A stretch of DNA of 5,828 bases from Promethearchaeota archaeon (GTDB lineage Archaea; Asgardarchaeota; Lokiarchaeia; Sigynarchaeales; SOKP01): positions 1 through 5,828 of the forward strand of contig WJKD01000467.1 in the NCBI GenBank assembly GCA_014729315.1, written 5' to 3'. The notes beneath the pieces are model-generated. The model saw only the letters and a list, made by a program, of their open reading frames with translations. It was not told the DNA's origin and ran no database searches. Below, in pieces: positions 1,010 through 5,326 of this stretch; the stretch's first letter is position 1, and each line of letters begins with the position of its first letter. Position numbers and translations under genes: made by a program.

Positions 1010-1049
1010 TCGTAACTTATTCTAACTAAAATGGTCCTCGGCGGTCGGA

Positions 1050-1078
1050 ATTAGCGATCTTATTGATCCTAACGATAT
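1050..1078 (+). other. tRNA-Sec intron 1, D arm, 29 nt, BHB type
   Basis: The fold is a bulge-helix-bulge. The central 4-bp helix is G1044-U1076, U1045-A1075, C1046-G1074, G1047-C1073. The 3-nt bulges are 1048-1050 and 1077-1079. The inner hairpin pairs 1051-1054 with 1069-1072 and 1056-1059 with 1065-1068, with C1055 bulged and a 5-nt loop. Cutting after the second nucleotide of each bulge, as archaeal tRNA endonuclease does in canonical sites, removes exactly 1050-1078. G1079 then joins A1049 and pairs with C1084, completing a 7-bp D stem. The outer helix is short (C1042-G1081, G1043-U1080). The boundaries are inferred from folding by eye. Confidence 0.82.
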
Positions 1079-1136
1079 GTGGTCTCTGACGCCGGACTTC
1101 AAATCCGGTTATCCTGCGGAGGGATAGGGGTTCGAT

Positions 1137-1166
1137 TTATGTTAGGTAAGTCCTAACATTCGAGAT
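1137..1166 (+). other. tRNA-Sec intron 2, T arm, 30 nt, BHB type
   Basis: The 4-bp T stem forms the outer helix. The central helix is U1131-G1164, U1132-A1163, C1133-G1162, G1134-C1161. The 3-nt bulges are 1135-1137 and 1165-1167. The inner hairpin pairs 1139-1146 with 1152-1159 around loop TAAGT, after one U-U mismatch (1138/1160). Cutting after the second nucleotide of each bulge removes 1137-1166 and leaves the 7-nt T loop TTCGATT. Flanking T residues make the exact joint ambiguous by one base either way (1136-1165 or 1138-1167 give the same product). The U-U mismatch and the G-U pair make this BHB slightly imperfect. Confidence 0.82.
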
Positions 1167-1262
1167 TCCCCCTGAGGACCGCCATACAATCTCTCTTATT
1201 TGGTTTAATGCTTAGTTTTATATTTGTTATAGATCAATTTAGATTAAAACCCATTTTCTTGC

Positions 1263-1312: not shown

Positions 1313-3025
1313 ATGGTAAAACTAACGCGAGAACAAATGTCTAGAGCAGTAAAGCTGTTAAACCAGGTGGAAGCTTATAGATTTTATTGGAAAGCCTCTG
1401 GATTCATTGAAGAAGATCTAGAGCGTCCTATTGTTGCTATTGCAAATTCCATGCAAGATGCGGGTGTAGGACACATGCATCTTAGTAATCTTGCGAGACA
1501 CGTAAAAGAAGGGGTTTATGCTGCGAACGGAACTCCAATTGAATTTAATGTAATTGGTCCCTGCGCAGGCTACGCGAAAACACCAGCAACAGACGATATT
1601 ACAATGTTATACGATTTACCTCAAAGGGAAGCAATCGCAGATTCTGTTGAGATCCAGCTTATGAATTATCAACCCGATGGGTTAGTATGTATTTGCACTT
1701 GCGATAAAATCGTTCCGGGGATGTGGTTGGGCGCTGCAAGATTAAATTTACCAACTTTATTCCTTCTAGGTGGACCTGCGATGCCAGGGAAATGGATGGA
1801 TCGGAAAATCGTGTTTCCAACGAACGTGATAGTAAAAGGATTGAATATGGTTCTATCTGGTGAAATGAACGAATATGAATATTTTAAAGAAATATCAAAA
1901 ATGGAATCGTGCTGGATAACGGGTTGTGGCGCCTGTCCCGAGCTCACGACCGCAAATACAACGATGATCGCAACAGAAGCTATGGGACTTTGTTTACCCG
2001 GAGTTTCAACGACTCCTGGAAATGAAATGGAAAAGATTCGGCAAGCAAGAAAAACGGGTCACGCTATTATGGACTTAATTAAATCAAAATTACGGTTTAA
2101 AAAAGTAGTCACCAAAAATTCGATGACGAATGCGTTTCGAGCGGTTATGGCTACCTCAGGTTCCACAAATGGGATTCTACATCTATTAACTCTAGCGGTA
2201 AGTCTCGATTTCGACATTGATGTGGATTTCATTCAGAAGATAAGCGAAACAACGCCATATATATCGCCGTTAAGACCAAGTGGACCGTATACGCTCGTAG
2301 ACTTCCATAATGCCGGTGGTGTTATGAGTCTGCTCAACAGACTTAAAAATATTATCAACTTAGATTGTAAAACGGTAGCAAATAAACCAATAAAAGAACT
2401 GATTGCAGATGCAATACCGAAAAGTTCGGATGTAATTCGGTCAGTAGATAATCCAATTAATTCTACTGGAGGAATTATCGTTTTGAAAGGTAACCTCGCT
2501 CCTGAAGGAAGCCTGATGAGGCATACTATTTTAAAATCAGATATGACAGAATTTACGGGTCCCGCTAAATGCTTTGACACTCAATTAAACGCATTAATGG
2601 GAATTTTAGGAGGTAAAGTTGAAGCAGGTGATGTTATGGTTATTCGTTTTCAAGGACCGAGAGGTGCGCCAGGGTTTTCAGAAAATTTTAAGATTGTATT
2701 ACTTTTAGACGCCTTAGGATTGAATGATGTTGCAGTCATCACGGATAGTCGTTTTTCGGGAGCAACGGAAGGGGCGCTTTACGTTGGATATATTTCTCCA
2801 GAAGCTTACGTAGGAGGACCATTAGCCGCCCTACAAGAAGGCGACAGTATTACTATTAGTTTAAAAAATAAGAAGGTTGAAGTAGATTTAACCGATGAGG
2901 AAATAGAAAACCGGCTGTACGCTTTTGAACCCCCAAAATCAAGGATCAAAAAAGGTGTGTTGGTTGAATGGAATCGAAGTGCCACGCAATTTCACGAAGG
3001 AGCGATGCTACCGAGGAAGCTTTAA
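1313..3025 (+). CDS. Divergent IlvD/Edd-family dehydratase (dihydroxy-acid or sugar-acid dehydratase-like)
   Basis: The 570-residue length is normal for this family of Fe-S dehydratases, which remove water from 2,3-dihydroxy acids (branched-chain amino acid synthesis) or sugar acids. Visible family blocks are CDK at 130-132 (cluster Cys, metal Asp, modifiable Lys), C208 before TANT 213-216, GSTN at 283-286, GNLAPEG at 393-399, GPRGAPG at 448-454 with E457, and DSRFSG at 478-483 where S482 is the expected catalytic Ser. Departures are notable. The first cluster Cys of dihydroxy-acid dehydratases (in PCNxHL) is G53. The usual SDG near residue 85 reads CAG. About four extra residues follow before RE 105-106. 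The usual DGRFSG reads DSRFSG, and the GH before SPEA is GY 492-493. Extra cysteines cluster at C126/C128/C130 and C205/C208. There is no signal or membrane segment. ATG 1313 agrees with the TATA box position. The family is secure; the substrate is not, and IlvD proper is doubtful. It lies between two selenocysteine genes without an obvious link. Confidence 0.9.
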   Translation: MVKLTREQMSRAVKLLNQVEAYRFYWKASGFIEEDLERPIVAIANSMQDAGVGHMHLSNLARHVKEGVYAANGTPIEFNVIGPCAGYAKTPATDDITMLYDLPQREAIADSVEIQLMNYQPDGLVCICTCDKIVPGMWLGAARLNLPTLFLLGGPAMPGKWMDRKIVFPTNVIVKGLNMVLSGEMNEYEYFKEISKMESCWITGCGACPELTTANTTMIATEAMGLCLPGVSTTPGNEMEKIRQARKTGHAIMDLIKSKLRFKKVVTKNSMTNAFRAVMATSGSTNGILHLLTLAVSLDFDIDVDFIQKISETTPYISPLRPSGPYTLVDFHNAGGVMSLLNRLKNIINLDCKTVANKPIKELIADAIPKSSDVIRSVDNPINSTGGIIVLKGNLAPEGSLMRHTILKSDMTEFTGPAKCFDTQLNALMGILGGKVEAGDVMVIRFQGPRGAPGFSENFKIVLLLDALGLNDVAVITDSRFSGATEGALYVGYISPEAYVGGPLAALQEGDSITISLKNKKVEVDLTDEEIENRLYAFEPPKSRIKKGVLVEWNRSATQFHEGAMLPRKL

Positions 3026-3172: not shown

Positions 3173-4534
3173 TTGGTAGACTTTAATAAAATTAATGATT
3201 ATTTCCGTCATACAAAAATTCCCGAAAATATGCTCGAACGGGGGCAATTGGTTTTAAACAACTTTCTCAATCCTATTAAGATACTTTTTGAGCAAAAGAG
3301 CGTTCCAGAAGAGCCGTGGAGCGACGAGCAAATAGATCTCCTCCTTCAAGTTCTTTCAAATATGGATACTGATAAGGACGATAAGGCGGCGAGAGTAGGA
3401 GAGAGAGAAGCGAGGATCGCTTCAAAATTGCATCTCAAGACGAGTAGTGGTTTTTGTCATGGAGTAGGAAGAAGCGGTTTTCTTACCGCTCCACAGCCGA
3501 AAGCGCCTGGTGCGTCGATGATGTACGTTCTTTCAAATTACTTGGCGACTAGTTTTCTTAAAAAGTTTGGATTACCGAACATTAAAAAGGCGATCGTAGT
3601 TCCAATCTGCACGGGAATGTCGCTTGCTTTGTGTTTAAGCGCTCTAAGACCGGATTGGAGCCTAAAGGAATTATCAAAAAAAAGAACAATTATTGTTCCC
3701 AGAATCGACCACAAATCACTTTTGAAAGCGTTTGACTTAGTAGGATGCGAGAAGAAGATAATTGAAGGAAAAATCTTTGGAGATGCGGTTAGAGTTCCTT
3801 TTTCTGATATTGAGAAAAGTTTTGATAAAAACTGCTTTGGAATTGTTTCAGTTACAAGTTTTTTCCCTCCACGAGAACATGACGAACTTAAAGAAATAAG
3901 TAAGTTTGCAAAAGAACATCAACTTGTCCACATAATCGTTAATGCTTACGGCGTCCAGAGTCCAGAATGGATGAAGATGATACGATCTGCTATCGATGCT
4001 GGAAGAGTCGACGCTATCGTGCAGTCAACTGACAAAAATTTCCTCACGCCAATCGGAGGTGCGGTTATCGCCTCCCCAAATAAAAATATTATCGAAAAAA
4101 TAAGTCAAACTTATCCAGGCAGAGCTTCTGCTAGTCCAGTGGTTGATTTTCTTATCTCTATATTATCTCTGGGTATCGAAGGATACGAAAAACTCTTAAA
4201 AAAACAACAAGAAAATCGATTATTACTGCGAAATAAAATGGAAGAATTTTCAAAAGAAATAGGAGAACGAATATTAGACGTATTTAACCCCGTTGCTGTA
4301 GCAATGTCTCTCAAAAATTTAGAAACAGAGAAATTAACTGCGCTTGGAGGGGCTCTTTATAATTTACGAGTGACAGGACCGAGGGTTTATAATTCGTATG
4401 AAAATCCTTTCGGTATCAGTTGCGAAAATTATCCAACGCCCTACATCGTCATGAATGCCGCAATTGGAGCATCATCTGAAGATGTCGTGAATGCCATCGA
4501 AAAACTTAAAAAGGCTTTTTTCCAAATTAGTTAA
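3173..4534 (+). CDS. spcS: O-phosphoseryl-tRNA(Sec):selenocysteinyl-tRNA synthase (SepSecS), eukaryote-like
   Basis: This PLP enzyme converts O-phosphoseryl-tRNA-Sec to selenocysteinyl-tRNA-Sec with selenophosphate, the last step of archaeal/eukaryal Sec synthesis. The 453 residues match the family's fold-type-I layout. GEREARIAS at 76-84 holds the phosphate-loop Glu/Arg. GRSG at 99-102 and QPK at 108-110 form the substrate pocket. TGMSLALC at 147-154, NAYGVQS at 257-263 and QSTDKNF at 284-290 follow, with K288 as the PLP Schiff-base lysine (human K284). PIGGAVIA is at 293-300 and YPGRASASP at 314-322, with R317 equivalent to human R313. From memory, these blocks agree with the human protein almost residue for residue, more than with methanogen enzymes. 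The start is TTG with a GAGGT site 9 nt upstream; TGA immediately upstream in frame rules out an earlier start. The N-terminal 45 residues before the E-E-P-W segment are less conserved, as in the family. It shares strand and neighbourhood with its substrate tRNA-Sec. The enzyme appears intact. Confidence 0.97.
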   Translation: MVDFNKINDYFRHTKIPENMLERGQLVLNNFLNPIKILFEQKSVPEEPWSDEQIDLLLQVLSNMDTDKDDKAARVGEREARIASKLHLKTSSGFCHGVGRSGFLTAPQPKAPGASMMYVLSNYLATSFLKKFGLPNIKKAIVVPICTGMSLALCLSALRPDWSLKELSKKRTIIVPRIDHKSLLKAFDLVGCEKKIIEGKIFGDAVRVPFSDIEKSFDKNCFGIVSVTSFFPPREHDELKEISKFAKEHQLVHIIVNAYGVQSPEWMKMIRSAIDAGRVDAIVQSTDKNFLTPIGGAVIASPNKNIIEKISQTYPGRASASPVVDFLISILSLGIEGYEKLLKKQQENRLLLRNKMEEFSKEIGERILDVFNPVAVAMSLKNLETEKLTALGGALYNLRVTGPRVYNSYENPFGISCENYPTPYIVMNAAIGASSEDVVNAIEKLKKAFFQIS

Positions 4535-4645: not shown

Positions 4646-5326
4646 ATGCAAAATCGATTATTAGAACAATACAATACCGTAATTAGTTCGCAATGGATGT
4701 CTCAGATCTTCACGGAACCTTACGAACCGCTCAATCATCGCCAGTTATTCGAATTAGCTTACCATACGTGTAATAATGTGAGTACCAGAAATATTTTTAT
4801 TAAAATCTCTCAGGACGATGATAAAGGCGGTTCAAAAGCAATTTTATATTGCAATAATAAAACTTTTACCACAATAGAAGCATTAGACGATGAGTTAAAA
4901 GTCACGATGTATTTTAACGACGAATCAAACCAAGACAAACTCGCAAGCAATATTCATCCCCTTCTTATAAAAAGAAAAAACAATTTTAACGAAATTAACG
5001 AATTAATTCAAAATCAAATTTTAAAGACGATTTTAGTCGAAAGAAAGCTTGATGAATGCGCCAATCTTGTTATGATAAAAGATATTAATCGTAAGATATA
5101 TTTTGCGATCGGAGATGCAAGAGAATCCGCTGCGGTCGTTCCGCTCTTTATGGAAACCGAAGGTTCAAATCTCGTTCAATTGGCGCTTAATAAATGGATG
5201 GCAACCGCACAAAGGCTCCAACCCGAAGAAACATTTCCAGAAACTCATGTGCAAGGGCTTTTAAAGAATCTGATGCAAATAAAAAAATGGGTACTGGCTA
5301 TCCTCGATAAGTACTTAGATAAATAG
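4646..5326 (+). CDS. Hypothetical soluble protein, 226 residues
   Basis: I do not recognise this protein. It has coding-like composition: a mixed alpha/beta sequence with no long hydrophobic segment and no signal peptide. It looks like two parts. Residues 1-130 are polar and mostly helical with a beta stretch around 46-90 (FIKISQ, AILYCN, VTMYF). Residues 131-226 start with a possible beta-rich core (LVMIKD, IYFAIGDARESAAVVPLF at 151-168) and end in amphipathic helices rich in Lys and Leu. Three cysteines (42, 69, 138) are scattered, with no metal-binding pattern. ATG 4646 is the likely start; no Shine-Dalgarno site precedes it, and TTAATTA at 4611-4617 could be a TATA box giving a very short leader. 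Three in-frame stops in a row (TAG TAA TAG, 5324-5332) end it. It lies 111 bp after SepSecS on the same strand, so a role near Sec metabolism is possible but unsupported. Confidence 0.75.
   Translation: MQNRLLEQYNTVISSQWMSQIFTEPYEPLNHRQLFELAYHTCNNVSTRNIFIKISQDDDKGGSKAILYCNNKTFTTIEALDDELKVTMYFNDESNQDKLASNIHPLLIKRKNNFNEINELIQNQILKTILVERKLDECANLVMIKDINRKIYFAIGDARESAAVVPLFMETEGSNLVQLALNKWMATAQRLQPEETFPETHVQGLLKNLMQIKKWVLAILDKYLDK

What the first reader, a model, noticed from the sequence alone, without database searches (positions are those of the whole stretch)
1033..1184. tRNA-Sec gene with two introns, in the D and T arms
The sequence shows a full 9-bp acceptor stem, UCA anticodon arm, long variable arm and CCA, but D and T arms that are 29 and 30 nt too long. 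Both excesses fold as BHB motifs with 4-bp central helices and 3-nt bulges. Cutting by the canonical rule gives exactly the D stem (7 bp, loop TGGT) and T loop (7 nt) expected of a 9/4 tRNA-Sec. Archaeal tRNA introns are mostly at 37/38. Two non-canonical introns in tRNA-Sec, with none in the anticodon loop, is unusual. I cannot tell whether it has been reported for Lokiarchaeia. Standard tRNA finders would probably miss it.
Basis: partly seen in the sequence, partly recalled or inferred. Interest (0 to 1): 0.88.

Follow-up and report, generated by a model that had tools for sequence, protein, structure and literature searches.

The report
Selenocysteine tRNA gene with two introns
A Lokiarchaeia-like archaeon's gene for the tRNA that inserts selenocysteine is interrupted by two small introns at unusual places; relatives with and without them indicate that they are real introns, which common tRNA searches miss.

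Summary
The finding holds. Window 1033-1184 is a tRNA-Sec gene with two BHB-type introns: D arm 1050-1078 (29 nt) and T loop 1137-1166 (30 nt). In-silico excision gives a 93-nt cloverleaf with 31 of 31 expected pairs; ARAGORN calls that tRNA-SeC(tca) but finds nothing unspliced or with one intron removed. Relatives with intronless, D-only, T-only and D+T forms lie beside SepSecS. One near-identical pair (L004/L041) differs by the whole T intron plus one T-stem pair. Central helices sit at one register and intron helices covary. Of 123 Asgard genomes with a tRNA-Sec match, 67 are intronless, 21 D+T, 9 anticodon+T, and 6 have three introns. Rfam's tRNA-Sec model reached its cut-off in 13 of 40 genomes, exactly the intronless ones.

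[quoted passage not shown] I found no description of the D-arm intron, the multi-intron forms or their turnover in the papers searched. Splicing is inferred. The window's genome is not held, so a second tRNA-Sec there cannot be excluded.

The parts
1033..1184 (+). tRNA-Sec gene, two introns, CCA encoded
   Evidence: parse; spliced form recognised by ARAGORN and a profile
1033..1049 (+). exon 1: acceptor 5' strand and the first 6 nt of the D stem's 5' strand
1050..1078 (+). D-arm intron, 29 nt, between the 6th and 7th nt of the D stem's 5' strand (mature nt 17/18)
   Evidence: BHB and junction; absent in intronless relatives
1044..1047 (+). central helix of the D BHB, exon side (GTCG), pairs with 1073-1076
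1073..1076 (+). central helix of the D BHB, intron side (CGAT); bulges 1048-1050 and 1077-1079
1079..1136 (+). [quoted passage not shown]
1099..1101 (+). anticodon UCA
   Evidence: sequence; ARAGORN on the spliced form
1137..1166 (+). T-loop intron, 30 nt, between T59 and T60
   Evidence: exact absence in L041 versus L004
1131..1134 (+). central helix of the T BHB, exon side (TTCG), pairs with 1161-1164
1161..1164 (+). central helix of the T BHB, intron side (CGAG); bulges 1135-1137 and 1165-1167
1167..1184 (+). exon 3: T60, T stem 3' strand, acceptor 3' strand, G73, CCA
3173..4534 (+). SepSecS, O-phosphoseryl-tRNA(Sec) selenium transferase (context)
   Evidence: NCBIfam TIGR03531, 503 bits against a cut-off of 225
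4646..5326 (+). putative Asgard selenocysteine-system protein (context)
   Evidence: NCBIfam NF045535, 231 bits against a cut-off of 132

Best explanation
This is a functional tRNA-Sec gene of a Lokiarchaeia-like archaeon whose transcript carries two BHB introns. The splicing endonuclease EndA would cut after 1049 and 1078 (D arm) and after 1136 and 1166 (T loop), and the exons would be ligated, giving a 93-nt tRNA-Sec with a 9/4 fold, a 7-bp D stem, D loop UGGU and T loop UUCGAUU. Shown here: anatomy, fixed register, covariation, intronless and single-intron homologues at the same kind of locus, EndA genes in relatives. Inferred: transcription, cleavage, ligation (RtcB recalled, not searched) and charging.
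For: The spliced form has 31 of 31 pairs and is called tRNA-SeC(tca) by ARAGORN; the unspliced form and either single excision give 0 genes; a profile of 24 distinct 93-nt intronless genes scores 83.5 bits spliced against 59.0 for the best piece unspliced. Central helix 4/4 in 22 of 24 distinct D junctions (2.5% in shuffles) and 26 of 43 T junctions (2.9%); moving the cut by 1-3 nt gives 0 of 29 (D) and at most 1 of 45 (T). Intron-helix covariation: T, 60 double-change cells against 23.7 shuffled; D, 16 against 4.9; 0 of 500 shuffles as high in both. L004 and L041 share the D intron and near-identical flanks, but L041 lacks exactly the T intron. The 21 D+T genomes each have one core match. PF01974 endonuclease in 34 of 35 genomes, two or more copies in 28, as in (alpha beta)2 EndA, which also cleaves relaxed BHB motifs (passages of PMC6379350).
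Against: No RNA data. The canonical BHB is not the minimum-energy fold of the precursor (4.1 kcal/mol above for both motifs), and the T arm has a competing 5-bp register. In 17 of 43 T junctions the fourth central pair is missing (relaxed motif). In one search two of five covariation measures did not exceed shuffles (136/500, 311/500). The window's genome is not held, so neither its EndA nor a second tRNA-Sec can be checked.
Confidence: 0.95

Rival explanations
1. The inserts are retained: the mature tRNA-Sec has enlarged D and T arms.
For: Sun 2021 speaks of unusual insertions and deletions in some Lokiarchaeia tRNA-Sec (passage of PMC9723677). The inserts fold as hairpins in the minimum-energy precursor.
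Against: Insert sequences vary while exons are nearly constant, and removing them restores the intronless relatives' tRNA. The inserts sit at the BHB register. The T insert would break the 7-nt T loop.
Confidence: 0.03
2. This copy is a decayed or unexpressed gene; a normal tRNA-Sec lies elsewhere in the genome.
For: The window's genome is not held, so this cannot be excluded directly.
Against: All 31 pairs, G73 and CCA are intact. It lies in a contig with SepSecS and another Sec-system gene. 21 of 21 D+T relatives have only one core match, with the limit that the assemblies may be incomplete and E was capped at 1e-6.
Confidence: 0.02
3. Introns are real but the 5' cut of the T intron lies one base downstream (5-bp central helix), giving an 8-nt T loop.
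For: The unconstrained fold prefers that register by 2.7 kcal/mol.
Against: Intronless genes and the spliced relatives checked have a 7-nt loop UUCGAUU; 43 of 43 T introns have at least 3 of 4 central pairs at the T59/T60 cut, although shuffles reach 3 in 22%.
Confidence: 0.05

Closest known systems
Lokiarchaeota tRNA-Sec with one T-arm intron (Mariotti 2016; not held, known from passages of PMC9499178 and PMC5330540)
   Same: tRNA-Sec of the same lineage, 7-bp D stem, T-arm intron of about the same length (31 nt there, 30 here)
   Different: A second, D-arm intron is present here; whether the published gene also has one could not be checked
Multiple non-canonical BHB introns in tRNA genes of Thermoproteales, Thaumarchaeota and of Atabey- and Freyarchaeia (passages of PMC8450103 and PMC11291895)
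   Same: BHB introns at non-canonical positions, up to three per gene
   Different: The passages do not describe them in tRNA-Sec; the tables of introns in supplements were not seen
Daphnia pulex tRNA-Sec introns (passage of PMC5330540)
   Same: intron-bearing tRNA-Sec
   Different: eukaryotic, one intron each, anticodon loop

Membership tests
archaeal tRNA-Sec | 9/4 fold, UCA anticodon, G73 | tested here: met
archaeal tRNA-Sec | 7-bp D stem with 4-nt loop | tested here: met
   7 bp, loop TGGT after excision
archaeal tRNA-Sec | Rfam RF01852 at or above the gathering score (47 bits) | tested here: not met
   26.3 bits, wrong register, on the unspliced gene; the spliced form could not be given to that tool. 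Intron-bearing relatives also fail, intronless ones pass
archaeal tRNA-Sec | charging by SerRS/PSTK/SepSecS | not testable with these tools
   only the SepSecS gene is present in the window
BHB tRNA intron | 4-bp central helix between two 3-nt bulges at both junctions | tested here: met
   both introns; T arm with a competing 5-bp register
BHB tRNA intron | exact excision gives a regular tRNA and homologues without the insert exist | tested here: met
BHB tRNA intron | cleavage by EndA | not testable with these tools
   EndA genes found in 34 of 35 relatives tested; none checked in the window's own genome

The most novel reading that the evidence does not exclude
Asgard tRNA-Sec is an intron hot spot: BHB introns at four places (D arm, anticodon loop, variable arm, T loop), up to three per gene, come and go repeatedly between close relatives, and they move as blocks by recombination between tRNA-Sec alleles that carry a flanking T-stem base pair along (co-conversion). 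This would make the locus a natural record of tRNA-intron gain and loss.
Probability: 0.45. Interest if true: 0.7.

Novelty: new variant of a known kind. Interest (0 to 1): 0.56.

Why it matters
An essential recoding tRNA is routinely split into three pieces in these relatives of eukaryotes, and standard models miss it: Rfam's tRNA-Sec model reached its cut-off in 13 of 40 SepSecS-bearing genomes, exactly the intronless ones. Surveys that need a tRNA-Sec hit may undercount Sec users. The many near-identical genes with and without an intron give a direct view of how tRNA introns are gained and lost.

Tried and rejected
Retained inserts, a pseudogene and a shifted T-intron cut were weighed as rivals. 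A shared origin of the two window introns (both hold CCTAAC) was dropped: relatives do not show it by eye, no test was made. My first reading of the BHB topology (bulges 5' of the central helix) gave no consistent motif and was replaced by bulges 3' of it. The automatic cut choice picked other cuts for the T intron in 3 of 45 genes (window, L007, L185); one search used the fixed T59/T60 cut for all 45. In one search, 8 of 37 distinct D-intron genes were left out of the D count because their cut or lineage differs (L052, L139, L178, L184, L185, L186, L188, L189). Covariation used 24 of 45 distinct T-intron genes (those of exactly 30 nt, plus strand, in SepSecS loci; 22 distinct arms) and 9 of 37 D-intron genes (29-30 nt). 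Own against swapped inner arms: T 6.05 v 3.77, D 5.21 v 4.27, anticodon 3.93 v 3.56 pairs of 8, so the anticodon introns show little. In one search, ten loci were classed by eye, two genomes stayed unparsed (G117, G119) and three are cut by contig ends. The SepSecS tree is a quick one; 25 of 77 inner branches are open and the window's place is weak (SH-aLRT 85-89, unstarred). Structure prediction and fold search were not used.

Full report
What is there. Window 1033-1184 is a tRNA-Sec gene interrupted twice. Exons are 1033-1049, 1079-1136 and 1167-1184; introns 1050-1078 (29 nt, D arm) and 1137-1166 (30 nt, T loop). The spliced 93-nt RNA has 9 acceptor, 7 D, 6 anticodon, 5 variable-arm and 4 T pairs, D loop TGGT, anticodon loop CTTCAAA and T loop TTCGATT, and its minimum-energy fold is the cloverleaf. 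ARAGORN reports tRNA-SeC(tca) on it and 0 genes on the unspliced gene or on either single excision; on the window it reports none. Rfam's tRNA-Sec model gives 26.3 bits in a wrong register, below its cut-off of 47.

Context. The contig also encodes SepSecS (TIGR03531) and a putative Asgard Sec-system protein (NF045535). The nearest other SepSecS protein listed is 75% identical. In the SepSecS tree the window falls inside the Lokiarchaeota-labelled rows, with weak support for its exact place. In 52 of 57 loci checked, window included, tRNA-Sec ends within 500 nt upstream of SepSecS; in the window an IlvD-like gene lies between and the gap is 1988 nt.

Relatives. A scan of 84,980 species genomes with a SepSecS alignment gave 80 loci. 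A 58-position model of the tRNA-Sec core matched 123 of 227 genomes of the phylum at E <= 1e-6. Parsing 232 loci plus the window gave 112 distinct genes. By genome: 67 without intron, 21 D+T, 9 anticodon+T, 7 D, 4 T, 4 anticodon, 4 D+anticodon+T, 2 D+variable arm+T, 3 cut by contig ends with at least one intron, 2 unparsed. The 21 D+T genomes have one core match each; G143, G145 and G024 have two. Three Bathyarchaeota-labelled contigs have a 20-21-nt intron at the same T-loop site.

Are they introns? (a) Register: at the fixed cut the central helix is 4/4 in 22 of 24 distinct D junctions and in 14 of 14 anticodon junctions; T has 4/4 in 26 of 43 and at least 3/4 in 43 of 43. Shuffled introns reach 4/4 in 2.5%, 1.5% and 2.9%; 3/4 is easier (20%, 14%, 22%). 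Cuts moved by 1-3 nt give 0 of 29, 0 of 14 and at most 1 of 45. (b) Covariation: on 22 distinct T arms the given structure pairs in 90.3% of cells against 77.7% in shuffles, with 60 double-change cells against 23.7; two other measures do not exceed shuffles. Nine D arms pair in 95.2% against 83.2%, with 16 against 4.9. Sliding the partners lowers the paired cells to 42-66% (T) and 32-49% (D). Relatedness is not controlled by the shuffles. L048 replaces the exon/intron pair C-G of the D central helix by T-A. (c) Natural deletions: L004 (D+T) and L041 (D only) share an identical D intron and almost identical flanks, but the whole T intron is missing in L041 and one T-stem pair differs (GGAG/CTCC against GGGG/CCCC). 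L001 and L002 differ by both introns.

Turnover. On the SepSecS tree, with unparsed rows not counted, the D intron needs at least 11 changes, the T intron 15 and the anticodon intron 2; many branches are weak. Among distinct genes with acceptor GGCCCTTGA, 15 of 15 with a T intron have T stem GGAG/CTCC and 0 of 15 without it do. On independent pairs over well-supported branches the two traits change together in 7.3 of 10 on average and never oppositely (median p 0.016). In other acceptor types the T intron goes with GGGG/CCCC or GCGG/CCGC, the window among them. Since the pair change is not needed for splicing, I read it as block transfer between alleles; linked selection is possible.

Enzyme. 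PF01974 was found in 34 of 35 genomes tested, two or more copies in 28. In the three genomes whose pairs I read (G003, G026, G040) both are about 200 aa; one keeps the Tyr and His of the catalytic region and the other lacks the His at that place (catalytic motif recalled). That suits an (alpha beta)2 EndA, a type described as able to cleave relaxed BHB motifs (passages of PMC6379350).

What is in print. Passages say: one T-arm intron of 31 nt in Lokiarchaeota tRNA-Sec, the only archaeal case known then (PMC9499178; PMC5330540); unusual insertions and deletions in some Lokiarchaeia tRNA-Sec (PMC9723677; figure S19 not seen); 92-95% of tRNA genes with introns, over half of tRNA genes with several, in three Atabey- and Freyarchaeia genomes, which also have a Sec tRNA (PMC11291895; its tables not seen). 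PMC11227280 and PMC13188914 hold no word 'intron'. Ten searches showed no paper describing a D-arm or a second intron in tRNA-Sec; the library lacks most subscription papers, including Mariotti 2016. The three-intron forms may be in the tables of PMC11291895 if those genomes are the same lineages; I could not tell.

Practical point. RF01852 reached its cut-off in 13 of 40 SepSecS-bearing genomes. These are exactly the 13 intronless genomes of that set; the other 27 bear at least one intron. In its 14 control genomes the search rings everywhere at the loose E <= 1 and clears the cut-off in 5.

Verdict. Observation confirmed, interpretation supported, new variant of a known kind.

Noticed in passing
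L178; L184-L186; L188, L189: tRNA-Sec genes with three predicted introns (D, anticodon, T; or D, variable arm, T) in other Asgard genomes.
   Followed up: partly
L064, L065, L068: Bathyarchaeota-labelled contigs have a 20-21-nt T-loop intron in tRNA-Sec at the same site as in Lokiarchaeia.
   Followed up: partly
L032: A contig titled Chlamydiae bacterium SM23_39 carries a Loki-like SepSecS and a D+T tRNA-Sec; probably a binning error.
   Followed up: no
L002:6686-6837: A tRNA on the minus strand that spans 152 nt, so other tRNAs of this lineage may have introns too.
   Followed up: no
G143, G145: Two full tRNA-Sec genes in one genome, each with a D intron (identical in G143).
   Followed up: no
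window 2419-2514: Sub-threshold RAGATH-23 match (27.4 bits, cut-off 92.6) inside the IlvD-like reading frame; probably chance.
   Followed up: no
window 1067-1072 and 1154-1159: Both introns hold CCTAAC; probably chance.
   Followed up: no
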